From positions 1 to 29,133 of the IMG/VR virus record IMGVR_UViG_3300044970_001797: 29,133 bases of DNA; one strand, written 5' to 3'. The DNA is from a virus. Every line of letters begins with the position of its first letter. Within the stretch, counting starts at the first letter, position 1. A program made the translations under genes and the position numbers. The notes under the pieces were generated by a model. The model was not told where the DNA came from. It saw nothing but the letters and a program-made list of their open reading frames with translations, and did no database searches. Positions 1,048 through 27,400 of the stretch are shown piece after piece.

Positions 1048-1056
1048 AAGAGCGCA
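1048..1056 (-). repeat. TGCGCTCTT box, copy 3
   Basis: Minus sense TGCGCTCTTCACCTTAGAGA, overlapping the 3' arm of the terminator-like hairpin and 27 nt upstream of the TTGCGC hexamer at 1015-1020. Confidence 0.65.
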
Positions 1057-4714: not shown

Positions 4715-5281
4715 CTATTGTTGTATTGTAGCCTTTGGGGCGGCCCCAGAGAGGACATTCGCCGCGACGGTCTGCCGGAGCTTTTCGACGGTAGACCAGT
4801 TGCCGACGACTCGATCAATGAGTGTGGCATCCACCCCGGCCTCGCTGGCGTGCCGCATCGACACGCCACGGACGCACCCTTCGCCGCGGACGATCTGCCA
4901 GACCTCGCCGCCGGCCGCCTTGATGGCCGCCGCCTCGTTGTCAAAGCGGACGTCGGTCACGACGACGTTGCGACCGTCGGCCAGGAGCCGGTCGATCCGG
5001 CGCATCCCGATGTCGATCCAAATGTTCTCGCCGACCATGCCCCTGCCCCACTCGGTTCCGAGGGTCTGGAGGAGCTGCCGCGGCGACCGGCCGACCCAGT
5101 CGATCTCGGTCTCCTTGAGTTCGCGGTCTTGGAGGTCTTCGGGCAGCAACCCGGTCACGACGGAGATCATCTCGTAGAGCGGGTCGGCGAAGGCCACGCG
5201 GTAGAACTGCGCCGTCTCGCGCAGGATGCTCGCCACCGTGTCTTTGCCGCTGCCGGCGGCCCCGCAGAGCCCAATCAGCAT
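4715..5281 (-). CDS. Deoxynucleoside monophosphate kinase (P-loop)
   Basis: This 188-residue protein opens MLIGLCGAAGSGKDTVASIL with a Walker A motif at residues 7-14 (GAAGSGKD). Further signs are FADPLYEMISVVTGLLPEDL, the family segment SPRQLLQTLGTEWGRGMVGE and NVVVTDVRFDNEAAAIKAAG. Relatives such as T4 gp1 phosphorylate dNMPs to dNDPs for phage DNA synthesis. It overlaps the deaminase gene by 7 nt; the deaminase supplies dUMP, so both act in pyrimidine nucleotide supply. The last codons ATIQQ contain the GGCTACAATA element discussed separately. Confidence 0.92.
   Translation of the reverse strand: MLIGLCGAAGSGKDTVASILRETAQFYRVAFADPLYEMISVVTGLLPEDLQDRELKETEIDWVGRSPRQLLQTLGTEWGRGMVGENIWIDIGMRRIDRLLADGRNVVVTDVRFDNEAAAIKAAGGEVWQIVRGEGCVRGVSMRHASEAGVDATLIDRVVGNWSTVEKLRQTVAANVLSGAAPKATIQQ
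4721..4733 (-). repeat. GSCTACAWT element before the holin-like gene
   Basis: Minus sense GGCTACAATACAA at the end of the dNMP kinase gene, 26 nt before the next ATG. The 13-mer AAAGGCTACAATA (4724-4736) is identical to the one at 10483-10495. Confidence 0.55.
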
Positions 5282-5733
5282 TCCAAATCCCTCCCGTCGA
5301 AGCGAATCGTGACCCCCACCGTCTCGTTGAGCCAGCGGATATTGACGCCCCCGCGACTGAGCATTTCGTCGGCCATCTCCAAGTTTTCTAGCCACCGACT
5401 CGGCGTGGCCTGCCGCAGGCTCACCAGTCCGACGACCTCGCGGATGCCGGACAGGATGATGCCCCTGGCGCAGTCGGTGCAGGCGAACCAGGGGGCGTAC
5501 ATCGTCGCGCCGGCAGTGGCAATTCCCACGGCCGCCGCCTTGTAGATCGCGGCCCGCTCGGCGTGCTCCGTGATCTGGTATTTGCTGGCGCCGTCGATCC
5601 GGCAGGCGGCGCGGTTGACCCCGTAGACCAGCCGCTTGCCGGCGACCAGGACGGCGCCGACTTGGGTGTTCGTGTCGTGCGAAACGGCCCTCGCGTAGCG
5701 GAGAGCCTCGCGGAGATAGTCAGTCTCGTTCAT
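5275..5733 (-). CDS. dCMP/cytidine deaminase-type zinc enzyme
   Basis: This 152-residue protein begins MNETDYLREALRYARAVSHD and has the deaminase fold signatures TQVGAVLVAGKRLVYGVNR, TEHAERAAIYKA (H57-A58-E59) and PWFACTDCARGII (C85 and C88 as Zn ligands in a PxxxCxxC arrangement). Deoxycytidylate deaminases convert dCMP to dUMP for dTMP synthesis. The pair with the next gene, a dNMP kinase, supports a nucleotide-metabolism role. I chose the ATG at 5733; a 17-residue longer reading is unsupported. It overlaps the 60-aa gene by 14 nt and the kinase by 7 nt. A role in substrate preparation for modified bases is only a hypothesis. Confidence 0.9.
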   Translation of the reverse strand: MNETDYLREALRYARAVSHDTNTQVGAVLVAGKRLVYGVNRAACRIDGASKYQITEHAERAAIYKAAAVGIATAGATMYAPWFACTDCARGIILSGIREVVGLVSLRQATPSRWLENLEMADEMLSRGGVNIRWLNETVGVTIRFDGRDLEC

Positions 5734-5902
5734 AGGGCGTACTGCGCTCCTCCATAATCGCGATCCGGTACTGGAGCCGCTCAATCTGCTCGAGCGCCCG
5801 GCCGAGGGCCGCCGCCAGCGTCCCGTTCGCGGCCGTCCACGAATTCGACGGGCCGTACTTGTTCACCAGCTCCCAGGCTTTGTTGATTTCGTCGGGTGTC
5901 AT
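5720..5902 (-). CDS. Small 60-residue helical protein, function unknown
   Basis: The protein reads MTPDEINKAWELVNKYGPSN then SWTAANGTLAAALGRALEQI and a C-terminal coiled stretch ERLQYRIAIMEERSTPYERD. It is helical and charged. The start overlaps the metallophosphoesterase stop (ATGA), and its end overlaps the deaminase start by 14 nt, so it is translationally embedded in the enzyme cassette. It could be a small partner of either enzyme. No family recognised. Confidence 0.72.
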   Translation of the reverse strand: MTPDEINKAWELVNKYGPSNSWTAANGTLAAALGRALEQIERLQYRIAIMEERSTPYERD

Positions 5903-6948: not shown

Positions 6949-7157
6949 TTGTGCTCCTTCAGCAGGTCCGTGATCGCCTGGCAGAGTGTCGCGTAAGACA
7001 CCCCCGCGAATTTTCCATCCGTGTATGCCTTCTTGACCTCGCGGAGCCGCTGCTGCGCCTCCGGCGGCAGCTTCGAGAACCACGACCGCTTGGGCGGGTT
7101 GTTCATCGCGGCGGCGGCCCGCTCGAGCACGAAGTCAACGGCAGAGAGTTTCGGCAT
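6888..7157 (-). CDS. Small protein with possible helix-turn-helix DNA-binding region
   Basis: The real start is the ATG at 7157, overlapping the metallopeptidase stop by one base; it gives 89 residues. It begins MPKLSAVDFVLERAAAAMNN and contains LPPEAQQRLREVKKAYTDGK followed by FAGVSYATLCQAITDLLKEH and a C-terminal RDTILRWLRSSGT. The two short helices with a G-[VL]-S-x-[AT] turn resemble helix-turn-helix proteins such as phage small-terminase or regulator N-termini. The end overlaps the next gene by 61 nt, an unusually large overlap. A DNA-binding role is plausible but unproven. Confidence 0.75.
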   Translation of the reverse strand: MPKLSAVDFVLERAAAAMNNPPKRSWFSKLPPEAQQRLREVKKAYTDGKFAGVSYATLCQAITDLLKEHKWPVPGNRDTILRWLRSSGT

Positions 7158-7444
7158 CACTCTGTCTCCCTGTAGCCAAGGGTCCAAAGAACCCTCGAAA
7201 GGTCGCGGGCGGATTCCGTGATGTGCTCCTCGCTCACCGTGGGATAGAGAGCGTGGAGGCACTCGTGGACGATGGTTTCGAGGCGGGGGCGGTTGGAGAG
7301 CTTCTCGTCGATGAGAATCTTCCGCTCGAGCTTTGGGTTCTTGGAGTCCGGTAGATAGGCCCAACCGGCGGCGTTGCCGCGGAGGCGGGTGAATCGCAGG
7401 AGCCACTTGACCCCGGCCAGCGTGAAGTGGTGGTCTTCCGGCAT
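7157..7444 (-). CDS. Small HExxH zinc metallopeptidase-like protein
   Basis: This 95-residue protein has the motif VHECLHALYP at residues 59-68, giving H60-E61-C-L-H64, the HExxH zinc site of gluzincin/SprT-like metallopeptidases. A possible third ligand lies in VSEEHITESARD. Its length is far shorter than usual proteases, so it may be a domain-level enzyme, a zinc-binding protein or a peptidase-like adaptor. The N-terminal half (VKWLLRFTRLRGNAAGWAYL) is basic. It opens the seven-gene cassette after a promoter-like sequence and its stop overlaps the next ATG (TGATG). The motif is clear; activity and substrate are unknown. Confidence 0.75.
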   Translation of the reverse strand: MPEDHHFTLAGVKWLLRFTRLRGNAAGWAYLPDSKNPKLERKILIDEKLSNRPRLETIVHECLHALYPTVSEEHITESARDLSRVLWTLGYRETE

Positions 7445-7450
7445 GGGGAT

Positions 7451-7478
7451 ATTGTGGCTATGTAGCCTATCCGGTCAA
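7451..7478 (-). promoter_or_regulatory. Promoter-like sequence for the enzyme cassette
   Basis: In the 47-bp gap between the poly-Gly gene and the mini-metallopeptidase gene, minus sense reads TTGACC-16 nt-CACAAT. The -35 hexamer is near consensus. The spacer holds a GGCTA-CA-TAGCC inverted repeat. The ATG is 6 nt after the -10-like hexamer, so a leaderless message is possible. No good ribosome-binding site is seen, in line with this. Confidence 0.5.
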
Positions 7479-7491
7479 GGCGAGGTTTTGG

Positions 7492-8298
<807 letters not shown>

Positions 8299-8313
8299 GG
8301 CCGGGACTCCTTT

Positions 8314-9399: not shown

Positions 9400-9402
9400 C
9401 GT

Positions 9403-10107
9403 TCAGGTGATGAAGTAGAGGGTGGCCGTATTGGGCGAGGTGATCGCCGAGAACGCCGACTGGGTGAGCACGACAACAGCCGTGACCTGAGTGCCGCCGG
9501 TGATGAAGTCGTGGGCGTGCGTGGCCGACGCGGCCGAAATGTCCGTGACCGTCAGGGTCACGTTCCCAGTTCTTCCCTGCACCTGCGTCACCGGGAAGAC
9601 GAGGTCGGTGATGCTGGCCGTATTGTGGGTGTGGCTGACCGCGGCGTAGGCGTGAGTATGGCTGGCGGCGGCGGCCGTCAAGTCAGTGACGGTCAGCGTC
9701 ACCGTGCCGGTGCGGCCCTGGACGCTCGTGACGATCGGCGAGATGTCAACGGCGCTGTGGGTATGGGTTGCCGGCTGGAAGAGCGTCGGGACGTTCGTGA
9801 GGCTTGTGTACGAGCCGCTCACGGCCACCGCGGCCAGCCCTGTCACCTCGATTGCGGCGTGAGTATGGGTCGCCGCAGCCGCCGTGACGTCGGCCGCGGT
9901 GAGCGAGATCACGCCGGTGCGGCCCTGCACGGACTGCACTGATTGCGCCTGGCCGATGACGGTAAAAGCACCGCCGGTCGTCGTGACGGTGATGTTGGCC
10001 CCTGCCTGCACCTGGAGCGCTGGCAGGCCGTAGTTGATGGCGGGGCCGACGTTGAGGGAGACGGTATCCCCGCCGGACTGGGTGACGATGACTGTGATGT
10101 CGCTCAT
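9403..10107 (-). CDS. Tail fibre protein with His-x-His repeats
   Basis: The 234-residue protein contains three copies of a VQGRTGxVxLTxxD unit (near residues 59, 129 and 177), each followed by Ala-rich sequence and HxH motifs at residues 81-83, 115-117, 150-152, 159-161 and 197-199. HxH motifs bind metal ions along trimeric needle-like fibres such as the T4 gp37 tip; here they occur between collagen-like units typical of phage tail fibres. The start at 10107 overlaps the previous gene by 4 nt; a 21-residue extension is unsupported. Its host-binding role is inferred from family resemblance. It precedes two other surface proteins. Confidence 0.85.
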   Translation of the reverse strand: MSDITVIVTQSGGDTVSLNVGPAINYGLPALQVQAGANITVTTTGGAFTVIGQAQSVQSVQGRTGVISLTAADVTAAAATHTHAAIEVTGLAAVAVSGSYTSLTNVPTLFQPATHTHSAVDISPIVTSVQGRTGTVTLTVTDLTAAAASHTHAYAAVSHTHNTASITDLVFPVTQVQGRTGNVTLTVTDISAASATHAHDFITGGTQVTAVVVLTQSAFSAITSPNTATLYFIT

Positions 10108-10475
10108 GGTGCCACCGGCCTCACTGCCCCGGAAAGAACGGTTCTCGTCACCATCCCCGGAGACACCCACCGGAGATACCAGCGGTAGTTATTGGCCGGC
10201 GAGAGGGCGGCCGTCTGAGTCTCTGACAGGCCGATGACGATCTTGCCAGCGGCCAGGTCAACCGGCGTCACGACGAACGCCGTCGCCGTCTGGCCGACGG
10301 TGTTCACGAAGCCCGCGCCGCCGCCACCGGAGGCCAGGTTTCCTGAGACGTAGATGGCATTGTGAAACTGATAGCCAGTGATGTCGTTGGAAAAGTCCAG
10401 CGCAACATTGACTTCGTCTCCGGCAACGAATGCGAAGTCCATCTGCGCAGGGAGCTGGCTGAACGTGACGGCCAT
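10104..10475 (-). CDS. Small beta-rich tail/baseplate-type protein
   Basis: This 123-residue protein begins MAVTFSQLPAQMDFAFVAGD and has EVNVALDFSNDITGYQFHNA with GKIVIGLSETQTAALSPANN and YRWYLRWVSPGMVTRTVLSG. The pattern of an N-terminal 'GD.i.l.l....itGytf.a.I' strand followed by a strand pair and 'yrW.L..v' is typical of small phage baseplate or fibre-attachment proteins, including BppU N-terminal-like domains. It lies 20 bp after the GCGCDRR gene and overlaps the next fibre gene by 4 nt (ATGA). AGGA lies four bases before the ATG. It may anchor the following fibre. Confidence 0.75.
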   Translation of the reverse strand: MAVTFSQLPAQMDFAFVAGDEVNVALDFSNDITGYQFHNAIYVSGNLASGGGGAGFVNTVGQTATAFVVTPVDLAAGKIVIGLSETQTAALSPANNYRWYLRWVSPGMVTRTVLSGAVRPVAP

Positions 10476-10482
10476 AATATCC

Positions 10483-10495
10483 TATTGTAGCCTTT
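10483..10495 (-). repeat. GSCTACAWT element before the baseplate-type gene
   Basis: Minus sense AAAGGCTACAATA, directly after the stop of the GCGCDRR gene and 8 nt before the next ATG. Identical over 13 bp to the element at 4724-4736. Confidence 0.55.
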
Positions 10496-14183: not shown

Positions 14184-14186
14184 CAC

Positions 14187-14879: not shown

Positions 14880-14881
14880 AA

Positions 14882-18900: not shown

Positions 18901-20073
18901 CGCCTGCGACGCGAGCCTTCCGCTGAAGTAATCTGCCGGCAGTTGCGTGGCTCGCTGCGAACGAGCGCCGACATTTGCAGCCAGCTCTCGCTCTCGGTTG
19001 AGGCTGGCTTCGGCATCACGAAGGGCAGCGATGTCTCGAATGCGGTCACGGATCGACCGGCCAGTGGCATCGACGGTTGAGGCCAGTCGCGAAGACGCTC
19101 CGACGTTAGCGGCCAGTTCTCGCTCGCGGTTGAGGCTGGCTTCGGCATCACGAAGGGCAGCGATGTCTCGAATGCGGTCACGGATCGACCGGCCAGTGGC
19201 ATCGACGGTCGAGGCCGCACCTACGTTCGCAGACTCAAGTGCCTCGCCAACCTGCGCGCGCACACGCGCAGCAATCTGAAGCAGGCTCTCCAGGCTCGCC
19301 CGCGCCCGCGTCGTGTCGATGTTGAGAATCGTCCCAGACTCAATCTCAGCCCGTCGCTTCTGAATCAGATTGTCGATGGCGACGAGTTTCTGGACGTCAT
19401 TCGCAACCCGGCCACCCTCGAGCACCGAAGCCGGGGCTGCGGCGGCCCGCTGCCTTACATCAGCCGACGCGGCCAGCGAGTCGCGGACGCGGGGGGCAGC
19501 GAAGGCCAACTCCGTCCCACGCGGGCCTGCGGATGCCATCTGCGCGGCTTCGGCGAGCCGGTCGGCGGCCTGGGCTGCGGCCAGTGCTCGCCTCTCGATA
19601 CGCTCGAAACTCTTCTCGCCGATGATCCCGCCACGAGTGAGGGCGGAATTGAGATACTCCGCACTCTTCTGGGCCGACTTCAGCGCCGGCTCGAATCCCA
19701 ACTGCACAGGGGCCGCGAGTTTCTCAACCGCCCGTGCGGCCCGCGAGAGCGGCTCGTTGACGAGCACGGCCGCCTGCTGGAGAGCCTTGAACTGATCGAC
19801 GGCCTGGCGGATCGAACCCACCGCCGCCGTGTCGAAGCCCTTGAACGAGAGCCTCTGCGTGGCGACTGCCTGGAGGGCGCGTGAAACCTTCTGCGACTCT
19901 GTGTAGATGCCGCGAAGCGCCGACGTCGCCTCCGACTGGGCGCGGGTGAGCGACGTCTGCATCGACTTGGCGAAGCTGCGAACCTCGTTCGCCGACGCAT
20001 TCAGCTTGCTATTGAAGTCGCTGGTGTTCGCCGTAACCAGCGCCGAGATTTTACCGAGATACGCTTTTGCCAT
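15946..20073 (-). CDS. Tail tape measure protein
   Basis: At 1375 residues this is the longest gene in the window; tape measure proteins set tail length and often pass into the host during DNA entry. It is dominated by alpha-helical coiled-coil sequence rich in Ala, Gln, Glu and Arg, as expected. The N-terminus is MAKAYLGKISALVTANTSDF with NEVRSFAKSMQTSLTRAQSE, a start common in tape measures. A hydrophobic segment LFIGLAAVIGGQVAVAINKW near residue 630 is a candidate membrane segment. A tandem duplication of 44 residues (STVDATGRSIRDRIRDIAAL repeat) lies near residues 285-375. By the usual about 0.15 nm per residue rule it predicts a tail near 200 nm. It follows the chaperones and its stop overlaps the next ATG by one base. 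Confidence 0.93.
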   Translation of the reverse strand: MAKAYLGKISALVTANTSDFNSKLNASANEVRSFAKSMQTSLTRAQSEATSALRGIYTESQKVSRALQAVATQRLSFKGFDTAAVGSIRQAVDQFKALQQAAVLVNEPLSRAARAVEKLAAPVQLGFEPALKSAQKSAEYLNSALTRGGIIGEKSFERIERRALAAAQAADRLAEAAQMASAGPRGTELAFAAPRVRDSLAASADVRQRAAAAPASVLEGGRVANDVQKLVAIDNLIQKRRAEIESGTILNIDTTRARASLESLLQIAARVRAQVGEALESANVGAASTVDATGRSIRDRIRDIAALRDAEASLNRERELAANVGASSRLASTVDATGRSIRDRIRDIAALRDAEASLNRERELAANVGARSQRATQLPADYFSGRLASQAADSLGSPLGAATRQLDQFRSGIVSAKSQLDAMPAAVRSHFIPAIQGAEQEFIRLVALGPRATAEEIENAARNMDTLTAAVRRTTQAAQVQSFGDFINDADVRQSIGELQGLQRVLIQVGSVAGGPAARAYEAYRARLQEAISTGTTGLPAVRRELERLQRAAAEAAAATGRISVGNAFRQIQRGGDVARGGFDNFSLAVNQAAFAIDDFFSATGGLEFKLRAVSNNITQLAFILGGTQGLFIGLAAVIGGQVAVAINKWINDGRTAEDQTKALNDALARQKSLVEELAQAFQSLGESLTRNVFSPAASEANDFRKQLDDLIKKQKELREGRVADADQGVQRERANQAALQRRLDSEGNAGVRVGLQRQIEASRVREQEAARRANAGSATRDDVRLALERSLANVGVAQLAPAVDAGSAAARAREADRVRQQASQDARRLSAGDDSQQRAAIEAEIRRLSPVATGGDALGFGVAAAAAKELEQLERVLSTLDATKVVRALDEVAVQLFEGAKPAADAIEAAQSAVAEGIKEGVPAARQFGIAVDQVGVAFQEALRAFEAAARIADPTERQAAQEEAATKLSDATAQAAALKTQTQGITVATSAVQRFAEALDRSRREVEQNLQQAQSNADATRRADLGRSTPDSRKARDAAESQLRDQQAAKVRVEQEIARAREVFGQQAAQFGPTKDRAGRAARMLSAGREFTRIREAAGIERAGGQTDEDVIDEARRRGLDAVADALQKQADIINQGAKTFPTWDDAELAVAEYESTIQSFTGKIASSLDRISQIDKQLASAGVLPQEARDSLIAERAALENSVVEQSAGVKRARDASTQLAEQAASADRGDVLQQTPGERAAKDLEQQIADIRESASRAAENSSGMPEDIEKIRKRMNEAIGRAEEDMIRRVAPMLAGFEQERMNARIPSRAALVAADVSTAQGAQELNRLLRGDDPNKNINFAEMAKQTAELKQINEGIKKVADGLGGVVN
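18995..19209 (-). repeat. 132-bp tandem duplication in the tape measure gene
   Basis: Two 83-bp segments, 18995-19077 and 19127-19209, are identical, with an offset of 132 bp (44 codons). Weaker similarity extends to the left of each core, so the full unit is about 132 bp. It keeps the reading frame. The near identity points to a recent unequal duplication. Confidence 0.93.
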
Positions 20074-20077
20074 CGGG

Positions 20078-20395
20078 TCATCCCTGACGCGGTTGGTTCA
20101 GTTTCATCAACTCGTTCAAAATCTGCGCCTGCGACTGCTCCGGCTTGACGGCCGTCGGAATGAAGACCGCCTCGTCAGGTATGTCGCCCTTCTTGTAGTT
20201 CCCGCTGGCCGCCATGATGATGCGGCAGATTCTCGCGGTCTGAGCCCAGGAGTCGGGGAGCGGGTGCCTCTGGTCGTAGGCATACCACTCCGCGATCTCC
20301 TCCGAATCAACCTCCCGCAGCAACCGCTTGACCGACATTCCCAGGCAGAGGGCCAACTTCAGGTAGAACTTCCGCTCGGGCCTGTCGGCTAGTCT
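20078..20395 (-). CDS. Tail assembly chaperone, downstream frame made by -1 frameshift (lambda T-like)
   Basis: This is the second half of the chaperone. No good start codon is present at the correct place; reading in the -1 frame from the slippery site gives RLADRPERKFYLKLALCLG followed by MSVKRLLREVDSEEIAEWYA and YDQRHPLPDSWAQTARICRI. The stretch resembles the lambda T-type region of chaperones ('lAl.lgmtv.eLl.ris..El.eW.ayy'). The -1 frame is open from the site to the stop at 20078, adding 105 residues after Lys111 of the upstream protein. The end lies 4 nt before the tape measure start. A stand-alone product from an internal TTG or ATG is less likely. Confidence 0.85.
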   Translation of the reverse strand, partial: RLADRPERKFYLKLALCLGMSVKRLLREVDSEEIAEWYAYDQRHPLPDSWAQTARICRIIMAASGNYKKGDIPDEAVFIPTAVKPEQSQAQILNELMKLNQPRQG

Positions 20396-20727
20396 TTTCC
20401 CAGCGCCTCCACGGCCTCGTTCGTGAAGGCGTTGACCTTCCAGGCCGCGTCGAAGACGCGATTGATCACGACGCTCGACTTCTTGCCGAGGTCAGCCGAA
20501 TCCTCATCCTTGAAAATCCGCTCGCCGGCCTCGTCGCACAGGGCGAGCAGGAGGAACCGGACACGAAACGCCTTCATCTTCTGCTCGGCGTAGGACTCCT
20601 CGAAGGAGTCGCGGTCGGTGCCGCTGATCACCTTGATGTAGTAGGTGCCGCCCCACTCGGGGATTTCAACGGCCTCCACCTTGATGTCGTTCGCCGCCAG
20701 AATCCGCTTCCGAAGATCAGTCGCCAT
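20389..20727 (-). CDS. Tail assembly chaperone, upstream frame (lambda G-like)
   Basis: This 112-residue protein lies directly between the tail-tube genes and the tape measure gene, the position of tail assembly chaperones. It begins MATDLRKRILAANDIKVEAV and contains YYIKVISGTDRDSFEESYA and FRVRFLLLALCDEAGERIF, which match the chaperone pattern 'vkvreltgkeRdafe...r..ll.l...De.G..lF'. GGGAG precedes the ATG. Its last codons CTG GGA AAA GAC TAG contain the heptamer G-GGA-AAA, a canonical -1 slippery site, so a fraction of ribosomes should continue into the downstream frame to give a fusion of about 216 residues. These proteins coat or recruit the tape measure during tail assembly and are absent from the mature virion. 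Confidence 0.9.
   Translation of the reverse strand: MATDLRKRILAANDIKVEAVEIPEWGGTYYIKVISGTDRDSFEESYAEQKMKAFRVRFLLLALCDEAGERIFKDEDSADLGKKSSVVINRVFDAAWKVNAFTNEAVEALGKD
20395..20401 (-). other. Programmed -1 frameshift slippery heptamer GGGAAAA
   Basis: In minus-strand sense the zero frame reads CTG GGA AAA GAC TAG. The heptamer G GGA AAA fits the X-XXY-YYZ rule, 3 nt before the codon next to the zero-frame stop. The -1 frame beyond it is open and encodes the recognisable second chaperone half. Lambda uses GGGAAAG at the same place in its G/T genes. I have not found a clear downstream stimulatory structure by eye. Confidence 0.88.
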
Positions 20728-20728
20728 G

Positions 20729-21085
20729 CTAACTCCCTGAGTAATCCGTCATCGTGAACTTCATCGTCCCTCGAACCAATTCGCCAACCCTGGCTTCAAC
20801 CTGCGCAGACTCCAAAACCACATTTCTCGAAACCGAAAGGAAGCTTGAAGTGAATGTCAGAGGCCCAACCGTTCCGGTGTCCGGCGGTGGGGCGTCGGCC
20901 AAGAAATCCACGGAGATTGAGCCGGGCTTGAAGTCTCCCGTTGGCACCATGACGGCATGGCCGGCTGGTGTGTTCGCTGCCGTCATATCGACCAACTCCG
21001 GCGTACCGGCCTCGACGGAGATGCCCGTCACCTGGCCGGCGAACCCACTGAACGAGAAGGTCGCGTTGTAGGCAATGCCTGGCAC
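20729..21085 (-). CDS. Tail-tube-like protein, copy 3 of 3 tandem paralogs
   Basis: This 118-residue protein starts at a GTG (21085), which gives the N-terminus MPGIAYNATFSFSGFAGQVT aligned with MAGVSxQGxTF of its two neighbours. The C-terminus VVLESAQVEARVGELVRGTM also aligns with theirs. It is the most diverged copy, with ADAPPPDTGTVGPLTFTSSF in the middle. No strong ribosome-binding site precedes the GTG, so translational coupling to copy 2 (gap 2 nt) is likely. The stop lies 1 nt before the chaperone ATG. Confidence 0.7.
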   Translation of the reverse strand: MPGIAYNATFSFSGFAGQVTGISVEAGTPELVDMTAANTPAGHAVMVPTGDFKPGSISVDFLADAPPPDTGTVGPLTFTSSFLSVSRNVVLESAQVEARVGELVRGTMKFTMTDYSGS

Positions 21086-21087
21086 GA

Positions 21088-21444
21088 CTAGACCTGCACG
21101 CGGAACGACGCGGAACCCCGAACAAGCTCACCGACGCTGGCTGTGACCTGCGACGATATGCAGGTCGCGTTTCCTGAGAACGCGATCTTTCCGCCGACCG
21201 AAAGCGAGCCAGATGCGTTGACCAGCGGGATCGCTGACGCGGTGATGTATTCCACATCAACCGTCGGCAGCGAATCGACCGTCTTGTGCGTGTAGTAAAC
21301 CTGCTCTGGATCGTCTGGCCCCAGCCCCATGTGGGCGCCGGAGACGCGGCCCCGCTCCTGGCCGTAATTGACCGTGACGCTGGTGACGGAATAGGAGCCA
21401 CCACCAAACGAGAACGTCGTGCCTTGTGAGCTGACGCCAGCCAT
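21088..21444 (-). CDS. Tail-tube-like protein, copy 2 of 3 tandem paralogs
   Basis: This 118-residue protein begins MAGVSSQGTTFSFGGGSYSV and has a C-terminal half, GKIAFSGNATCISSQVTASV-GELVRGSASFRV, that aligns with both neighbours. The central part (LGPDDPEQVYYTHKTVDSLP) is the most divergent region among the copies. Only 6 bp separate it from the upstream gene. The role is inferred as a tail-tube or tube-related virion protein from position and paralogy. No catalytic motif is visible. Confidence 0.72.
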   Translation of the reverse strand: MAGVSSQGTTFSFGGGSYSVTSVTVNYGQERGRVSGAHMGLGPDDPEQVYYTHKTVDSLPTVDVEYITASAIPLVNASGSLSVGGKIAFSGNATCISSQVTASVGELVRGSASFRVQV

Positions 21445-21450
21445 GTCGCC

Positions 21451-21786
21451 TTACGCGACGCGGAAGGTCGCGCTCCCGCTGATGAGAGCCCCCACCGAAC
21501 CGCCGATCGAGGCCGATGCGAGCGTCGCGTTGCCGCTAAACGACATCGGGCCGCTGATCGACAAGGCGCCGGACGTACCGGCCGCGAGCACCGTGGTCGA
21601 GATGTAGTCGATCGTGACTTCCCGTTCGGTGGCGAAGCCGCCGACGAACTCGCGGCGACCGCCGGGGGCGATGCCGAGATGCGAGCCGTCAACGAGGTCT
21701 TGGGTGTCACTGACTTGAACGCTCGTGACCGTGAGGCTGGAGCCACCGAAGGTGAAGGTGAGTCCCTGTGCTGAAACGCCTGCCAT
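21451..21786 (-). CDS. Tail-tube-like protein, copy 1 of 3 tandem paralogs
   Basis: This 111-residue protein begins MAGVSAQGLTFTFGGSSLTV and ends ATLASASIGGSVGALISGSA-TFRV. Both ends closely match the next two gene products, so the three are paralogs. It lies after the tail terminator and before the tail chaperones, the position of the major tail protein in siphoviruses. The beta-rich composition and alternating Ser/Thr/Gly strands fit a tube-type fold. AAGGAGG lies close upstream of the ATG, a strong initiation signal. Which copy forms the main tube is unknown; one could be a tail-surface or neck ring variant. Confidence 0.72.
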   Translation of the reverse strand: MAGVSAQGLTFTFGGSSLTVTSVQVSDTQDLVDGSHLGIAPGGRREFVGGFATEREVTIDYISTTVLAAGTSGALSISGPMSFSGNATLASASIGGSVGALISGSATFRVA

Positions 21787-21825
21787 GTGTTCGCGCCTCC
21801 TTGCGCCGCAATCTAGTCTTGTAGG

Positions 21826-22254
21826 TTACGCGGTGGCTTCGTTCCACCGAATCTGAAACAACTGCCGGACTTCGTAGGCCGGAGGCAGTTGCGCCCCAGC
21901 GACCGTCGGATCGAGGAAGTCGTCCGTTTCGGACACCAACCTCATATCTTGTATTGTAGCCCCGGCCATAGTGCCGGTGTGTCCATCCAGCGCAAGCCGC
22001 ACCTCGTCGGCCAGTTCACGCACCGCGTCGTAGGAGAGCGCCCACGACGCAATCTGGAGGCCGACGACCGGGACGAAGAGCGGGCCGCTCAGGGCCGTCT
22101 CGCGGGTGATGTTCGACCGCTTGTAGACGATGAACGGCAGGCTCGCGCCGGTCTTCGGCACGGCGATGGGGTAGACCTGGAAGCCGACGATCCGCGCCAC
22201 GCCGGGCGTGGAGACGAGTTTCTGGTAAACGTGCTTTTCGGGGGAGATGAGCAT
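21826..22254 (-). CDS. Tail terminator/completion protein (DUF3168-like)
   Basis: This 142-residue protein has the layout of DUF3168-type proteins, which cap the tail tube at the head-proximal end. It opens PEKHVYQKLVSTPGVARIVG, then IVYKRSNITRETALSGP, IASWALSYDAVRELADEVRL (the family's central helix) and a C-terminal AYEVRQLFQIRWNE strand. The ATG overlaps the upstream stop (TAATG). Unusually, the coding stretch ATIQDMR carries a 21-bp element nearly identical to one in the capsid leader. Gene order (gp10-like, then terminator, then tube) fits siphoviruses. Confidence 0.85.
   Translation of the reverse strand: MLISPEKHVYQKLVSTPGVARIVGFQVYPIAVPKTGASLPFIVYKRSNITRETALSGPLFVPVVGLQIASWALSYDAVRELADEVRLALDGHTGTMAGATIQDMRLVSETDDFLDPTVAGAQLPPAYEVRQLFQIRWNEATA
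21941..21961 (-). repeat. GSCTACAWT element inside the tail terminator gene
   Basis: Minus sense GGCTACAATACAAGATATG (18 of 21 matches with the capsid leader element). Here it lies within coding sequence (ATIQDM), 155 bp upstream of the first tail-tube-like gene. Confidence 0.55.
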
Positions 22255-23024
22255 TAGAATTTGTTGATTTCTGCTTGGATCAGTTGGGCCAGGACGCCTT
22301 GCACCTGGGCCGCCGAACTGACGATGGTGCGTTCCATCGGGTGATACGCTGGCATCGGGTCGATGCTCTCGCCAGGGCCGAGCGTGATCGGGTGCGTCTC
22401 GCCGTCCTTGCCGGTGGCGAAGTCGTGGGAGTAGCCCTTGCCTCGCTTGGACTGCCGCGTCGGCTCATTGAGGCTGCCCATAAGGAAGTAGTACCCGCGG
22501 CTGCGGCGGGCGAATTCTTCGTCATTCATGGCCGACGACGTTCGCCGCATCTTGCCGTTGATCATCTGGTGGACGTTGACGTAGGTACGGCGGTTCTGCG
22601 TACCGGGGCGGCGGCGGCCGGAGCCGAACTCGACGAGCCAGGCATGGTTGCCGCTCTCGCGCCCCTCTTCGGAGCCGACGGGGCCGGTCTGCCGGGGGCC
22701 GGTGATCGCCACGGCGACTTGGCCGCCCTCGTATTCCTTCGTCCGCGTGATCGTCGCCTTGGCGAGGTTGCCGGTGGCACCGCTACTGCCCGCGGCCAGC
22801 GGCTTCGAGACGAGGGACTTGTAGCCCATCGCAATCGGTCGCGATGCCTGCTTGACGCACTTTTGGAGCAGCCCCGGCGCGGCGAGCGCCCCGGCCACAC
22901 GCTCGAGTTCCTTTGCCAGTTCGCGGACGCCAGCGGTGTCAACCCGCACGAAGCCCTCGGTCTGGCTTTTGCCGGTGCCGAAGCCAACGTCACGGGGCGA
23001 CGGATTGCTGGGATTGATCGCCAT
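22254..23024 (-). CDS. HK97 gp10-like neck/tail-completion protein
   Basis: This 256-residue protein sits between head-tail joining and tail-terminator genes, where HK97 gp10-like proteins are encoded. Supporting segments are VDTAGVRELAKELERVAGAL, a conserved region with NLAKATITRTKEYEGG, then NHAWLVEFGSGRRRPGTQ matching the family's 'A..vEfGT' turn, and a C-terminal PAYHPMERTIVSSAAQVQGV matching the 'PFlrPA...' end. It is longer than a minimal gp10-like protein because of an insertion of about 70 residues (roughly 150-220) rich in Arg, Ser and Gly. It overlaps the following gene by one base (TAATG). Confidence 0.82.
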   Translation of the reverse strand: MAINPSNPSPRDVGFGTGKSQTEGFVRVDTAGVRELAKELERVAGALAAPGLLQKCVKQASRPIAMGYKSLVSKPLAAGSSGATGNLAKATITRTKEYEGGQVAVAITGPRQTGPVGSEEGRESGNHAWLVEFGSGRRRPGTQNRRTYVNVHQMINGKMRRTSSAMNDEEFARRSRGYYFLMGSLNEPTRQSKRGKGYSHDFATGKDGETHPITLGPGESIDPMPAYHPMERTIVSSAAQVQGVLAQLIQAEINKF

Positions 23025-23025
23025 G

Positions 23026-23340
23026 CTACTGCACCTCGTGGACGAGGAGTTCCAGTCGCGTCCGGTTGTCCCGCTCGCTCACGCTGGCGATCTCGAGCGT
23101 CTTGCCACGCCAGAGAATCCGATACTGCGGATTCACCGTGGCCCGGTAGCGGATCGAAATCTTGTGCGAGGCGATGACGTTGGCTTGCTGGGCTTGGAGG
23201 ATGTCGCGGCTCGACAGCCCATCGACGCTGGCCCAGACCGTGTCTTCGGTGGCCCACGAAAGCGTGGCTTCGCCCGTCGGGCTTCGCATCTCCTGCGGAG
23301 CCTGCAAGGCGACTCGCTCACGCATCATGCCGATGTTCAC
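23026..23340 (-). CDS. Head-tail joining/adaptor protein (SPP1 gp16-like)
   Basis: This 104-residue protein has the family signature of the phage head-tail joining proteins (Pfam PF05521). It opens MRERVALQAP with TGEATLSWATEDTVWASVDG, continues RDILQAQQANVIASHKISIR and ends YRILWRGKTLEIASVSERD. In SPP1 the relative gp16 closes the connector and gates DNA. The GTG at 23340 is chosen because it overlaps the upstream stop (GTGA) and has GAGGG 5 nt before it; ATGs at codons 5 and 6 are alternatives. Position between connector and gp10-like genes agrees with the family. Length is typical. Confidence 0.92.
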   Translation of the reverse strand: MNIGMMRERVALQAPQEMRSPTGEATLSWATEDTVWASVDGLSSRDILQAQQANVIASHKISIRYRATVNPQYRILWRGKTLEIASVSERDNRTRLELLVHEVQ

Positions 23341-23798
23341 GTTACGCTGCCCTCGCCGATCAAGACGATGTCGTAGGTCGCGCCAGCCGGACCAGTGACC
23401 GTGATCGTCCCGGCCGTCATGCCGGCGGCCGTCGGATCAACCTGCACATACGCGCCCCCCGCGGCCACGGCCAGCCCGCTGGTGGGCAGCGGCAGGCCCG
23501 CAAAGGTCAGGAGCGACGAGGCGTGGCTGTTGCGGATGTAGACGGCTTTCACCGCCGTGATCGCCACGCTCACTGCGGCCCCGTCGCGGGTGTCTGGCAG
23601 GCTGGCGAGGTTCAGCGTCTCGCCGGAGCCGACAATCGTCCGCGAGTCGCTCCAGACCACCTGGGCCTGGTAGGCCGCGGTGCCGTCGGAGAGCACGGCC
23701 GAATACGAAGCGGGGGTCGCCCGCAGCGTCCGCGCGATGTCGGCGACGCTCGTCTCGTGGGCAAGGATGGACAGCGTGATCTGGGCATTCAAGCTCAT
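23337..23798 (-). CDS. Phage structural protein of unknown function between connector and head-tail joining genes
   Basis: This 153-residue protein is mostly beta-rich and small-residue-rich: ARTLRATPASYSAVLSDGTA, SRTIVGSGETLNLASLPDTR and a C-terminal TITVTGPAGATYDIVLIGEG. The segment VKAVYIRNSHASSLLTFAGL resembles small virion proteins where a scalar or field value is evaluated on a beta sandwich, but I cannot name a family with certainty. Its start overlaps the connector stop as ATGA and its stop overlaps the next gene (GTGA), placing it firmly in the head-completion operon. A minor virion or neck protein is the most likely role. No catalytic residues, membrane segment or signal peptide are seen. 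Confidence 0.7.
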   Translation of the reverse strand: MSLNAQITLSILAHETSVADIARTLRATPASYSAVLSDGTAAYQAQVVWSDSRTIVGSGETLNLASLPDTRDGAAVSVAITAVKAVYIRNSHASSLLTFAGLPLPTSGLAVAAGGAYVQVDPTAAGMTAGTITVTGPAGATYDIVLIGEGSVT

Positions 23799-24445
23799 CG
23801 GTATTCTCCCCAGCCGCTCGCAGCGAGCAGCGTCTCGAACGTCTGCGGCACCGGCAGTACCTGGCTGTAGCCGGCCACGACGGGCTGCCGCATCTCGAAC
23901 CAGTGCGCCACCAGAAGCATGATCAAACTCTTCACCGTTTGCGGTACATTCCCGCCACTGGCCCCGTAGCCGGCCGTCCAGCGGACGGTGACGCTGTTCT
24001 CGTCGCCCCGCACCGCCGGCCAGACGCCCTCGTAGTTCGGGTAGACGCGACCGGGGGTCGTGCGGGCATCCACCTGGAAGGCGTTCGCCGCACTGGTGAT
24101 GGTCTGCATGGAGCCGCCCTCGTCGCGGTACGTCACCGTCACCGTCTCGGCCTGCATCGGGGGCTTCGGCAGGACGATCTCCCAGAGCGGAAACGTGTCG
24201 TAGCGAGCCTCCCAGACTTGGCTGACGAGACTCAGGCCCAGCACGTTCTCAACGTACTCGCGGGCCGTCGAGATGAGGCTCGCGAGGTAGGCGTCCTCGT
24301 CGGTGCCGTCCACGCGACACTGAGCCTTCGCCTCCGCGAGCGACACCGGCTCAACGACCGGGGCCGTGTGCCGGACGAGGCTGCGGTATGGCGTGATCGA
24401 GCTATCCGGGTGCTCCGGCGAGCCGTATCGAATCGTGACTGTCAT
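23795..24445 (-). CDS. Head-tail connector protein (gp6-like / phiE125 gp8 family)
   Basis: This 216-residue protein matches the head-tail connector group that includes HK97 gp6 and phiE125 gp8, which form a ring beneath the portal. Visible hallmarks are EPVSLAEAKAQCRVDGTDED with YLASLISTAREYVENVLG (the N-terminal helical adaptor), a central beta region YDTFPLWEIVLPKPPMQ, then VTVRWTAGYGASGGNVPQTV and the C-terminal helix KSLIMLLVAHWFEMRQ. The length is normal for the phiE125 gp8 type, which is longer than the minimal HK97 gp6. The start overlaps the upstream stop as ATGA and the end overlaps the next gene by 4 nt. The family assignment is confident from motif order and gene neighbourhood. 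Confidence 0.9.
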   Translation of the reverse strand: MTVTIRYGSPEHPDSSITPYRSLVRHTAPVVEPVSLAEAKAQCRVDGTDEDAYLASLISTAREYVENVLGLSLVSQVWEARYDTFPLWEIVLPKPPMQAETVTVTYRDEGGSMQTITSAANAFQVDARTTPGRVYPNYEGVWPAVRGDENSVTVRWTAGYGASGGNVPQTVKSLIMLLVAHWFEMRQPVVAGYSQVLPVPQTFETLLAASGWGEYR

Positions 24446-24639
24446 TTCACTCGCTTCCTTGCTTGTGACTGCACGGTGGCCTTTTCAGTCCGCTCCTCGA
24501 GCATCGCCGTCTCGGCGGGCTTCTCGCCGACCGGCTCGACCATCCCGCGGGCGATGAAGATGCGGGCCATCCCGTCGCCCCAGTCGAACACCTGGCCGAC
24601 CCGATACCCGTTGAAGCTCTTGAGTACGCGAATCTTCAT
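24442..24639 (-). CDS. Small phage protein of 65 residues, function unknown
   Basis: The protein begins MKIRVLKSFNGYRVGQVFDW and continues GDGMARIFIARGMVEPV before a charged Lys/Arg/Glu tail. Small proteins with this pattern (a KVLKPF..-GKVYPPG-like beta hairpin and an ARxLIxxGxVEPV helix) are common between connector and capsid genes in phages. The ATG at 24639 overlaps the glycosyltransferase stop as ATGA and its own stop overlaps the next gene as ATGA, which decides the start and implies translational coupling. A longer in-frame extension inside the upstream gene is not supported. The function is unknown; a minor head or connector-associated role is possible from context. Confidence 0.75.
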   Translation of the reverse strand: MKIRVLKSFNGYRVGQVFDWGDGMARIFIARGMVEPVGEKPAETAMLEERTEKATVQSQARKRVK

Positions 24640-25364
24640 TTTATGGCGCCCCAGGTTGACTCTGGCGGCGATTGGCCGCCGTTCCAGTATTCGGTCGTGT
24701 GCTGTTGCACCTTGCCGCCCTCGACCGTCCGGCTGGGCCAAGTGATCATCAGTTCGGCGTGGCCGACGCTGATGTTCGTCGCGAGCCCCAGTTTGTTGCC
24801 GGCCTTCGCGAAGCCCTTCCAGAACGAGATGTCCTCGTCAACGTGCGAGCCGTTCCAGTCACCCTGGTCGTTCGGCTTGGCGACGAACCAAGGCTTCTCC
24901 ATCTTCTTGATCGCTTCGGTGCGGATCAGCGTGCAGCCGAAATGCGCCGTCTCGACGAGCTGCACGGGCTTCGAGAACCAGTCGCCATCGACGACGGTCT
25001 TGTCGTCCGTGCTGACGCCCGGCAGGGCGAACATGACGCACGGGCTTTCCCGCTTCGTCTGGAGCGGCGCGATGGCATCCACGCCAGAGTGCATGAGCAG
25101 GGCGACGAGGGCTTCGACGGTCTTGCCGTTGAACACGGTGTCATAGTCAATCGTGAGAATGACGTCGTACTTGTCGATGACGCTCTCGATTGACCGCGTG
25201 AGACACTGGCCGAAGAAGACGCCCGTGTGCTTGATAACGGGAATCTGGTGGGGCGTCAGGGCCGAGTGGACGCAAAAGAAGTTGTCCGTGAAGCCGAGGC
25301 GGGGCGTGCTCATTACGGCACACACCCGCACCTCGGCCTCACAACTACCGACACGAATTAGCAC
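24636..25364 (-). CDS. GT-A type glycosyltransferase inside the head gene cluster
   Basis: This 242-residue protein resembles GT-A fold family-2-like glycosyltransferases, which transfer a sugar from a nucleotide-sugar donor. The N-terminal strand VRVCAVMSTPRLGF is followed by YDVILTIDYDTVF with a DxD motif at residues 73-75 (metal and nucleotide-sugar binding). Later come AHFGCTLIRTEAIKKM and HVDEDISFWKGFAKAG, matching the acceptor/base region ('DED.xF') of the fold. I chose the GTG at 25364 because it keeps the first beta strand and has AGGAG 7 nt upstream. The stop overlaps the next ATG as ATGA. Its position between capsid and connector genes suggests virion-protein or host-surface glycosylation, but the acceptor is unknown. 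The upstream ribosome-binding site lies in a small hairpin. Confidence 0.82.
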   Translation of the reverse strand: MLIRVGSCEAEVRVCAVMSTPRLGFTDNFFCVHSALTPHQIPVIKHTGVFFGQCLTRSIESVIDKYDVILTIDYDTVFNGKTVEALVALLMHSGVDAIAPLQTKRESPCVMFALPGVSTDDKTVVDGDWFSKPVQLVETAHFGCTLIRTEAIKKMEKPWFVAKPNDQGDWNGSHVDEDISFWKGFAKAGNKLGLATNISVGHAELMITWPSRTVEGGKVQQHTTEYWNGGQSPPESTWGAIK

Positions 25365-25369
25365 GACTT

Positions 25370-25386
25370 CGCTCCTGTTAGGAGCG
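25370..25386 (-). promoter_or_regulatory. Hairpin overlapping the ribosome-binding site of the glycosyltransferase
   Basis: In minus-strand sense CGCTCC-TAACA-GGAGCG forms a 6-bp GC-rich stem with a 5-nt loop. The 3' arm contains the GGAG ribosome-binding site for the GTG start at 25364. Such a structure could lower translation initiation. It is seen directly in sequence; a regulatory effect is inference. Confidence 0.45.
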
Positions 25387-25442
25387 GGCGCGCATCCTTG
25401 CGCCTTAGTCGGCCGTCACTGGCCGTCCCGCTTGTTTCGGGA

Positions 25443-25880
25443 TCAACCAGTAACCCAAGCCACCGCACCAGCCTCGCCAGCGGTCGTCGGCGCAACGCCG
25501 GCACGACTCAGGCGGGCAGTCACGGCGACATTGACGGCGGTCGTCGGGGTGACGCTGACCCGGAGGTAGCGCTTCTTCGACCGCGTGTCGATGTCCATCT
25601 TCACCACCGACGGCTGCGTGGTGACGGGAACCGTCGGGATCGTAAATCCATCGACGCCGCCGCCCACGAGGGCCGTCACGCTGGAGTAGGCCGTGTTGTC
25701 GTCCGACTCCTGCACACGCAGGACGCTCGCGAACACCGTGTTGGCGTTCGCCGCCCGCAGAACCGTCACGCTCGCATGGTCGTAGCCGAGCGTGTCGATC
25801 GTGAGGGTCGCCGTCTCGCTAGAGCCGGTGACACCCGCGGGGATCGTCGCTACGACCTTATCGTTTTCGTGCTGCTTCAT
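25443..25880 (-). CDS. Probable capsid decoration/head protein downstream of the capsid gene
   Basis: This 145-residue protein lies immediately after the capsid gene, the usual place for capsid decoration or stabilisation proteins. It is rich in beta-forming Thr/Val segments, for example SSETATLTIDTLGYDHASVT, RVQESDDNTAYSSVTALVGG and KKRYLRVSVTPTTAVNVAVT. The pattern of a fluctuating-signal beta sandwich ending RYLRVSVT is common among small phage head proteins. I see no catalytic motif, signal peptide or membrane segment. The ATG at 25880 has AAGGAG 10 nt upstream, and the gap to the capsid stop is only 21 nt, suggesting co-transcription and high expression. The role is inferred from position and composition; a tail or unknown virion protein remains possible. 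Confidence 0.6.
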   Translation of the reverse strand: MKQHENDKVVATIPAGVTGSSETATLTIDTLGYDHASVTVLRAANANTVFASVLRVQESDDNTAYSSVTALVGGGVDGFTIPTVPVTTQPSVVKMDIDTRSKKRYLRVSVTPTTAVNVAVTARLSRAGVAPTTAGEAGAVAWVTG

Positions 25881-25901
25881 CTCGAGAGTGCTCCTTTATG
25901 A

Positions 25902-27242
25902 CTAGGCCGTCTTGAGGGCGACCACCGGGCCGACCTCCGACGTCGAGCCGAGGGTGTGGTGGTTGACGTCGAACCGCATGGTTCCCTGGAGCAGGAGCTG
26001 ATCCGTGGTGGCGTACACCTGGTCGTACAACCGCACGGCGAAGTCCCGACGACGGGCGTAGATGCTGGACAGGGCCATGTTGCCGAAGAGCACCTTGACC
26101 TTGTTGCTGTCCACGCCGAGGGTGCTGTTGAGCACATGCACCATCCGCACGGGGTAGCCGAGGAAGGACTCACCGGCACCGGAGCCGACGTTCTCGACGG
26201 TGTTACCACCGGCGGCGTACTTCAGGCGGGCGATGCTCGCCGCGTAGCCGGCGGGCGAAACGTACCAGGCGGCTCCCTGGCGGGCGTAGATCGGCAGCTT
26301 GCCGATGACCGCGAGGAAGTCCTCGATGTCGAGCGTCTCGAAGGCGGTGTTGCCGCTGGCGGCCGACACGACCGAGGCCGTGTAGTTGCCGTCGTTGATC
26401 TTCGGGACGATGCCGTTGATACCACCCGAGCCAGAGGCGCCATCACCAAGCCAGCCGACCAAGTCGATTTTGTAACTGAGACTAGTTGCAAATTCAGTTG
26501 CAACAGCATCTGCAAGGTTGATCACACCGGCCGAATCCTCGACCACTTCGGTGCTCATCCGGCAGCCGACGGCGAGCTTCTTCGCCACGAGGCTCACCTG
26601 ACCGTAGGTCGGCTCGCTCTCGGTGATGGCCGAACCTTCACCGACGAAGTAGGCGGTCGTGCCTCCCGTCCGCTTCGGGATCACCATCGTGTCGCGGCTC
26701 ATCGACACGTTCTCCGCGGCGGGCGGGAACGTACCGTAGGTCTCGACAAGGCGGATCACGCGATTGGCGAACTCCTCCGGCACCAGCGCGCCACCGGCCG
26801 AGTTCGTGCCTTCGTTGAGAGCACGGGCCTCGACGCCGTTCTCACGGCACCACCGGATGTCGGAGTCGTTCTTGAACACGGCGGCCTTGATCCACCGGCC
26901 GCAGCGATACGCAGCGTCCACCGCATCCGGGCCTTCGTTGAAGGCGCGGAGGGTCGTGTGATGGGGGCTGACGGCCCGAATCTCGACCTTCTTGGGCTGC
27001 TCGGCGACGGGGGCAGGAGCCTCGGCGGGGGCGGCCTTCTCGACCACCGCACGCAGTTCGGCTTCCTTCTTGGCGAGGGTCCCCTCGAACTCCAGGTCCG
27101 ACTTCACCGCGTCGGCCTCGGCCGACAGCTTGCGGAGTTCCGCGGTTTGCTCTTCCGAACGCTCGGCCACTTCGGCCAGTTCGGTCATCCGAGCGGCGAT
27201 TGCCGCGGCACGATCCTGAAGACGCTTGAGGTTGCTCGCCAT
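25902..27242 (-). CDS. HK97-fold major capsid protein
   Basis: This 446-residue protein forms the icosahedral shell. Residues about 1-70 are a coiled, charged region (LKRLQDRAAAIAARMTELAE) that behaves like an HK97 delta/scaffold domain, followed by an Ala/Pro linker. The core is typical of the family: EGTNSAGGALVPEEFANRVI, then VSMSRDTMVIPKRTGG, AITESEPTYGQVSLVAKKLA, GDGASGSGGINGI and a C-terminal ARRRDFAVRLYDQVYATTDQ. The start is the ATG at 27242, preceded by GGAG and AAGG; an upstream in-frame extension of 28 residues is unsupported. The gene follows a 158-bp leader, the longest gap in the head module, which suggests separate control of this highly expressed gene. A short AT-rich patch is present inside it. 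Confidence 0.95.
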   Translation of the reverse strand: MASNLKRLQDRAAAIAARMTELAEVAERSEEQTAELRKLSAEADAVKSDLEFEGTLAKKEAELRAVVEKAAPAEAPAPVAEQPKKVEIRAVSPHHTTLRAFNEGPDAVDAAYRCGRWIKAAVFKNDSDIRWCRENGVEARALNEGTNSAGGALVPEEFANRVIRLVETYGTFPPAAENVSMSRDTMVIPKRTGGTTAYFVGEGSAITESEPTYGQVSLVAKKLAVGCRMSTEVVEDSAGVINLADAVATEFATSLSYKIDLVGWLGDGASGSGGINGIVPKINDGNYTASVVSAASGNTAFETLDIEDFLAVIGKLPIYARQGAAWYVSPAGYAASIARLKYAAGGNTVENVGSGAGESFLGYPVRMVHVLNSTLGVDSNKVKVLFGNMALSSIYARRRDFAVRLYDQVYATTDQLLLQGTMRFDVNHHTLGSTSEVGPVVALKTA

Positions 27243-27400
27243 GATTGGCCTTGCTCCTGGTTGAGCCGGCCAAACGCGAAAGTGCGGCAGCCGGCGGGTG
27301 TATTGCCCGCAAGCACGCCGCGACAAGAATCCTCAAGTCGCTCGCACTGCTCCTCACGAAATCCTTCGTGAGGCTTATATCTTGTAATGTAGGCTGTTGC
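27243..27400 (-). promoter_or_regulatory. Leader region of the capsid gene with hairpin and AT-rich element
   Basis: This 158-bp gap is unusual in a module where genes normally overlap. In minus-strand sense it starts with an AT-rich element (CCTACATTACAAGATATAAG, 27374-27393) that resembles a promoter -10 region. A perfect 9-bp inverted repeat follows, CCTCACGAA-GGAT-TTCGTGAGG (27352-27373). No T-run follows the hairpin, so an intrinsic terminator is less likely than an mRNA 5' structure or processing site. The capsid ribosome-binding site lies at the end of the region. Confidence 0.55.
27374..27394 (-). repeat. GSCTACAWT element in the capsid leader
   Basis: Minus sense GCCTACATTACAAGATATAAG-like, AT-rich in a GC-rich setting. 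It matches the element at 21941-21961 at 18 of 21 positions. It may be a -10 region, but no clear -35 is found. Confidence 0.55.

What the first reader, a model, noticed from the sequence alone, without database searches (positions are those of the whole stretch)
4721..27394. Recurrent GSCTACAWT element, mostly at gene boundaries, always in the coding-strand sense
Related elements occur at 27374-27394, 21941-21961, 10483-10495 and 4721-4736, with weaker forms at 7461-7467 (GGCTACATAG), 21813-21828 (ACCTACAAGA) and 21-34 (GCCTACACAA). Two pairs are strikingly similar: 18 of 21 bp between the capsid leader and the terminator gene, and 13 identical bp (AAAGGCTACAATA) between 4724-4736 and 10483-10495. 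They are AT-rich islands in GC-rich DNA. They could be late-promoter -10 regions, but several lack a -35 and one lies only 8 nt before an ATG. Alternatives are a phage-specific activator site, an RNA processing site or a recombination boundary used in mosaic exchange.
Basis: partly seen in the sequence, partly recalled or inferred. Interest (0 to 1): 0.65.

Follow-up and report, generated by a model that had tools for sequence, protein, structure and literature searches.

The report
Phage promoters and a capsid leader RNA
The repeated short sequence is the core (-10 box) of ordinary bacterial-type promoters that start transcription of several genes in an uncultured phage family; one is hidden inside another gene, and the one before the capsid gene begins a conserved folded leader RNA not found in Rfam.

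Summary
The four core GSCTACAWT copies are real (4 found, 0.23 expected) and conserved in dozens of related viral contigs. Nearly all other CTACA in the window are in-frame tyrosine codons (33 of 35 coding copies); the two exceptions are two of the reported elements. Comparative evidence makes the element a sigma70/sigmaA-type promoter -10 region. (1) Before the capsid gene, 42 of 42 distinct versions have TTGCA[C/G], exactly 18 bp, then TA; 33 are full TAnnnT; held-out contigs agree. (2) At the kinase 3' end the hexamer drifts between TACAAT, TATAAT and TAAAAT, with G at -14 in 31/34 and a purine 7 nt after it in 31/34. (3) The copy inside the tail-terminator gene is held at synonymous sites (AT3 0.77 versus 0.21). 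(4) The copy 7 nt before an ATG implies a near-leaderless mRNA. GG versus GC before TACAWT fits extended -10 sites without a -35 versus one capsid promoter with a -35. Of the weak forms, 7461 and 21 are not -10 boxes and 21813 is poorly conserved. The capsid promoter also starts a covarying ~146-nt leader RNA without an Rfam match. There are no transcript data and the host is unknown.

The parts
27410..27415 (-). -35 box TTGCAC of the major capsid gene promoter
   Evidence: TTGCA[C/G] in 42 of 42 distinct versions, always 18 bp before the TA hexamer; coordinates
27386..27391 (-). -10 box TACATT of the capsid promoter (element 27374-27394)
   Evidence: TA in 42/42, full TAnnnT in 33/42 with seven different hexamers; held-out contigs agree
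27240..27385 (-). Structured capsid leader RNA, from the base after the -10 box to the capsid ATG
   Evidence: Covariation in two hairpins; fold z -4.2; covariance-model match; no Rfam match
27352..27373 (-). Leader hairpin 1, GGA in the loop region
   Evidence: 8 of 9 pairs with changes on both sides
27320..27341 (-). Leader hairpin 2, GGA in the loop region
   Evidence: 6 of 7 pairs with changes on both sides
25902..27242 (-). Major capsid gene; ATG at 27242 (the TTG at 27326 lies in the leader)
   Evidence: phrog_10 match; ATG conserved in relatives
21953..21958 (-). Intragenic -10 box TACAAT within the tail-terminator gene (element 21941-21961)
   Evidence: Synonymous-site constraint over 47 distinct genes; kept in relatives
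21940..21958 (-). Constrained block TACAAT-N4-GATATGAGG
   Evidence: GAT 47/47, AGG 45/47, codon 99 ends in T 47/47
21826..22254 (-). Tail-terminator gene
   Evidence: phrog_347
21451..21786 (-). Gene after the tail terminator, likely major tail protein (guess from gene order; no family match)
10484..10489 (-). -10 box TACAAT, G at -14, 8 nt before the ATG of ORF 10104-10475; near-leaderless mRNA predicted
   Evidence: Kept in G001 and G008; homology with G001 begins at the element, 10101-10495
4725..4730 (-). -10 box TACAAT, G at -14, at the 3' end of the kinase gene, before ORF 4375-4698
   Evidence: 34 distinct sites in relatives, hexamer drift, G-14 31/34, purine at the 7th nt 31/34
7449..7478 (-). 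Promoter of ORF 7157-7444: TTGACC 7473-7478, N18, CAATAT 7449-7454; the reported weak form 7461-7467 is in its spacer
   Evidence: TTGAC-N18-NANNNT in 19 of 19 distinct upstream regions
53..80 (-). Candidate promoter TTGACG-N16-TAGCCT for the gene at the left end; the reported weak form 21-34 lies downstream in ribosome-binding sequence
   Evidence: Also present in G003; coordinates

Best explanation
The elements are -10 regions of sigma70/sigmaA-type promoters, most likely read by the host RNA polymerase with its housekeeping sigma factor, on the coding strand of this siphophage-like genome. The hexamer is TACAWT, a TAnnnT-type box. The capsid promoter has a -35 (TTGCAC, 18-bp spacer) and needs no extension. 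Transcription should start about 7 nt after the hexamer. This gives a ~140-nt structured leader for the capsid gene, an internal start inside the tail-terminator gene that feeds the next gene, a start at the kinase 3' end, and a near-leaderless mRNA for ORF 10104-10475. Shown: sequence conservation, spacing, hexamer drift, codon constraint. Inferred: promoter activity, start sites, which sigma factor, timing.
For: Excess over shuffles and non-coding-frame concentration. Capsid: TTGCA[C/G]-N18-TA in 42/42 distinct versions, TAnnnT in 33/42, confirmed on contigs found only by the leader RNA model (5 of 5 loci, 4 distinct). Kinase end: TACAAT/TATAAT/TAAAAT drift, G-14 in 31/34, purine at +1 in 31/34, background 0.049 per kb. 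Tail terminator: AT3 0.77 against 0.21. ORF 7157 upstream: TTGAC-N18-NANNNT 19/19. TAGGCT is among the 6-mers enriched after stop codons in an unbiased count (10 seen, 0.8 expected). Mapped promoters of a high-GC bacterium look alike (PMC3898074), and leaderless genes carry TAnnnT close to the start codon (PMC3160421).
Against: No transcript or reporter data. 9 of 42 capsid variants have TACAAA or TACAAC, without T at position 6. A strict E. coli consensus scan finds no promoter in 20000-29133. GATAT after the hexamer is more conserved than a start region needs. In 31 of 80 kinase loci the searched window held no such hexamer, mostly in distant relatives. G at -14 in the tail terminator is also dictated by the codon.
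Confidence: 0.9

Rival explanations
1. The element is the binding site of a phage-specific activator, repressor or sigma-like factor that recognises GGCTACA-N6-GATAT.
For: GATAT recurs at a similar distance after several copies; TAGGCTAC is conserved in the spacer before ORF 7157; ACT is kept three nt upstream of the capsid -35 in the variants listed.
Against: Spacing to the -35 follows TAnnnT, not CTACA (17 or 22 nt to CTACA, always 18 to the TA hexamer). At the kinase end only the -10 hexamer and G-14 persist. No sigma region 4 over the cut-off in 12 family genomes (incomplete genomes).
Confidence: 0.07
2. Recombination boundary sequence used in mosaic exchange.
For: Homology begins at or just before the element for ORF 10104 (G001: 10101-10495) and for ORF 7157 (right ends 7468-7494 in most relatives); genes are inserted upstream of the capsid promoter in G015, G018 and G021.
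Against: Does not predict an exact 18-bp -35 spacing, drift to TATAAT, G at -14, a purine start, or synonymous constraint inside a gene that stays collinear.
Confidence: 0.02
3. RNA processing or translation signal acting in the transcript.
For: Often close to stop and start codons; a folded leader follows in the capsid case.
Against: The element lies 5' of the conserved leader and is joined to a -35 box at a fixed distance; no shared RNA structure or ribosome-binding sequence at the other copies.
Confidence: 0.02
4. Chance recurrence plus Tyr codons.
For: Most CTACA in the window are Tyr codons; CTACAWT alone is barely above chance.
Against: The four elements are outside the Tyr frame; GSCTACAWT exceeds 100 shuffles; conserved in relatives; codon choice at the tail-terminator copy opposes the GC-rich bias.
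Confidence: 0.01

Closest known systems
sigma70/sigmaA promoters of high-GC bacteria (TAnnnT -10; mapped in M. tuberculosis, PMC3898074)
   Same: TAnnnT hexamer, often preceded by [G/C][A/G]N, no need for a -35, purine start preferred
   Different: Phage promoters of unknown host; TACAAT and TAGGCT preferred; capsid promoter keeps a strict TTGCAC at 18 bp; GATAT often follows; starts not mapped
Extended -10 promoters
   Same: G at -14 in copies without a -35
   Different: Position -15 is C, G or T and not fixed as T
Leaderless genes of Actinobacteria and Deinococcus-Thermus (PMC3160421)
   Same: TAnnnT about 10-14 nt before the start codon and no ribosome-binding site, at ORF 10104-10475
   Different: Seen here for a phage gene by sequence only; not shown experimentally
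Start-associated sequences of Cluster K mycobacteriophages (PMC3203893)
   Same: Short, one-orientation repeats close to gene starts, shared by genes of different families
   Different: SAS is GGGATAGGAGCCC, contains AGGAG and sits at the ribosome-binding site in the non-structural half; the present element has no AGGAG and sits mainly in the structural half

Membership tests
sigma70/sigmaA-type promoter | -10 hexamer with T1, A2 and T6 (TAnnnT) | tested here: met
   Four window copies TACAAT/TACATT; 33/42 capsid variants TAnnnT, the other 9 TACAAA or TACAAC; kinase 34 distinct sites
sigma70/sigmaA-type promoter | -35 box at 16-19 bp | tested here: met
   Capsid promoter only: TTGCA[C/G] at 18 bp in 42/42; absent at the other three copies
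sigma70/sigmaA-type promoter | Transcription start 6-9 nt after the hexamer | not testable with these tools
   Indirect only: purine at the 7th nt in 31/34 kinase sites
Extended -10 promoter | G at -14 where no -35 exists | tested here: met
   31/34 at the kinase end; GGC at the copies at 21953 and 10484; capsid copy, which has a -35, has C there
Extended -10 promoter | T at -15 (TGn) | tested here: not met
   T in 8/34 at the kinase end; G in the window copies; classed as the G-14 form only
Start-associated sequence (SAS) | GGGATAGGAGCCC overlapping the ribosome-binding site | tested here: not met
   No AGGAG in any of the four elements; definition from PMC3203893
Phage-encoded sigma or single-subunit RNA polymerase promoter | Such a polymerase or sigma gene in the genomes | tested here: inconclusive
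   Sigma70 region 4: none over the cut-off in 12 records; T7-type RNA polymerase: none, but the controls were silent too; records are incomplete
Known Rfam leader RNA | Match to a curated covariance model | tested here: not met
   No match at E up to 1 in 27200-27430 nor at gathering threshold in the window

The most novel reading that the evidence does not exclude
The capsid promoter opens a so-far undescribed family of cis-regulatory leader RNA (~146 nt, two strongly covarying GGA-loop hairpins plus further helices, one copy per contig, immediately before the capsid start). It would control translation or transcription of the capsid gene in a large uncultured phage group, for example by binding capsid protein or a GGA-binding regulator.
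Probability: 0.55. Interest if true: 0.6.

Novelty: new member of a known kind. Interest (0 to 1): 0.4.

Why it matters
It gives a defensible promoter map for a widespread uncultured phage group without any transcript data: conservation, spacing, hexamer drift and synonymous-site constraint stand in for 5'-end mapping. It shows a promoter kept inside a tail-terminator gene, probably to boost the next gene, and it exposes a conserved capsid leader RNA that ORF callers can read as a 28-residue protein extension.

Tried and rejected
Host identification failed: no bacterial genome encodes a close capsid relative, the phage collection has only distant capsid and terminase matches below 60% identity, and a DegT aminotransferase from a relative has only about 31-43% identical matches scattered over many phyla. 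The scan for relatives of ORF 10104 returned nothing. The idea that ribosome-binding sites generally sit in hairpin loops (CsrA-like) was tested genome-wide and not supported (stem of 4 or more in 25.6% against 20.3% of control sites; 5 or more in 7.3% against 9.9%). A fixed CTACA-N6-GATAT unit as the recognised element was considered and dropped as the main reading because spacing to the -35 follows TAnnnT; GATAT stays unexplained. The 16-mer scan of viral contigs mixes relatives with likely chance hits and was used only to find repeats in relatives. A strict E. coli consensus scan found no promoter in the region. The capsid leader has no counterpart in the phage collection at nucleotide level.

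Full report
What the window is. G000 is a 29,133-base IMG/VR virus record, G+C 63%. PHROG matches give a head protease, major capsid protein, head-tail adaptors, tail terminator, tail assembly chaperone, minor tail proteins, exonuclease, dCMP deaminase and deoxynucleoside monophosphate kinase, all read on the minus strand. Sixteen syntenic relatives were fetched and oriented.

Checking the observation. GSCTACAWT occurs four times, all minus strand, against 0.23 expected. CTACA itself is mostly coding: 33 of 35 copies inside genes are Tyr codons in frame, and the two exceptions are the elements at 21959 and 4731. Non-Tyr copies concentrate between genes. The three weak forms do not hold up as the same element: 7461 is in the spacer of a TTGACC-N18-CAATAT pair and 21 is in a ribosome-binding region; 21813 is not kept in several relatives.

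Capsid promoter. Upstream of the capsid gene in about 75 related loci, 42 distinct sequences all read TTGCA[C/G]-N18-TA; 33 give a full TAnnnT with seven different hexamers. The distance from TTGCAC to CTACA is 17 or 22 while that to the TA hexamer stays 18, which identifies the hexamer as the functional unit. A covariance model of the leader RNA then found contigs that had not been used for the alignment; 5 of 5 loci checked (4 distinct) carry TTGCAC-N18-TAnnnT.

Kinase-end promoter. At the 3' end of the kinase gene, relatives down to about 45% amino-acid identity keep a hexamer that drifts between TACAAT, TATAAT and TAAAAT while the amino acids and the stop position change. In 34 distinct sites G is at -14 in 31, and the 7th nt after the hexamer is a purine in 31; the hexamer class occurs at only 0.049 per kb elsewhere. 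In 31 of the 80 loci the search window held no such hexamer; most of these are the more distant relatives, and in L357 and L358 it lay just outside the window.

Intragenic copy. In 47 distinct tail-terminator genes the codons over the element prefer AT-ending or rare forms (GCT/GTT, ACA, GAT, AGG): AT at third positions is 0.77 over the seven codons from 98 and 0.21 over the gene. Selection therefore acts on the DNA or RNA and not only on the protein. The copy lies about 170 nt before the start of the next gene, a likely major tail protein (a guess from gene order; no family match).

Copy before ORF 10104-10475. TACAAT is kept in three genomes although the upstream sequence in the window differs from that of the other two. 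A start 7 nt downstream leaves 0-3 nt of leader, and no ribosome-binding site is present. Leaderless genes with TAnnnT close to the start codon are known in high-GC bacteria (PMC3160421).

One reading for all four. The three copies without a -35 have GGC before TACAAT, with G at -14; the capsid copy has GCC and a real -35. In M. tuberculosis, TAnnnT is often preceded by [G/C][A/G]N, no -35 consensus is found, and purine starts dominate (PMC3898074).

Leader RNA. Between the capsid promoter and the ATG at 27242 lies a leader with two hairpins whose pairs covary: 14 of 16 pairs change on both sides in some sequence, 54 cells against 17 in shuffles, and slid controls are far lower. The window's leader folds 4.2 sd better than shuffles. 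It has no Rfam match and occurs once per contig searched, before the capsid gene in the syntenic relatives. The TTG start at 27326 of the mechanical ORF lies inside it, so annotations using that start would be 28 residues too long.

What remains open. GATAT follows several -10 boxes at a similar distance; TAGGCTAC is conserved in the spacer before ORF 7157; ACT is kept three nt upstream of the capsid -35. These may mark a regulator. Host, sigma factor and timing are unknown.

Verdict. As a kind it is known; the intragenic promoter with synonymous constraint and the capsid leader RNA are the more interesting parts.

Noticed in passing
27240-27385 (-): Conserved, covarying capsid leader RNA with two GGA-loop hairpins and no Rfam match; once per contig in the relatives searched.
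   Followed up: partly
27243-27326 (-): The TTG-started capsid ORF runs into the leader RNA; tblastn then matches the RNA as if it were 28 residues of protein, a likely source of wrong start annotation.
   Followed up: partly
21793-21806 (-) and 25390-25403 (-): Ribosome-binding sequences set in short hairpins (GCGC-AAGGAG-GCGC, GCGCA-AGGA-TGCGC); relatives show GCAC-AAGGAG-GTGC after the kinase gene. Not a genome-wide trend.
   Followed up: partly
7462-7469 (-): TAGGCTAC conserved in the spacer between TTGACC and CAATAT before ORF 7157-7444 in nearly all relatives; reason unknown.
   Followed up: partly
27419-27421 (-): ACT kept three nt upstream of the capsid -35 in the distinct variants listed, also where the upstream gene differs; possible activator contact.
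   Followed up: no
1056-1080 (-): Strong hairpin AACTACCGA-GCAATC-TCGGTAGTT after the gene ending near 1097, a possible terminator of the long operon; a TAGAAT -10-like box follows at 993-998.
   Followed up: no
L206:2533-4466 (relative G005): A relative carries DegT-type aminotransferase and ATP-grasp genes; the closest cellular matches to the aminotransferase are scattered over phyla.
   Followed up: partly
L375, L381, L384, L387 (around the kinase stop): AAGGCTAC or TAGGCTAC sits just after the TACAAT box here (start of the predicted transcript), so the recurrent GGCTAC is not at one fixed promoter position.
   Followed up: no
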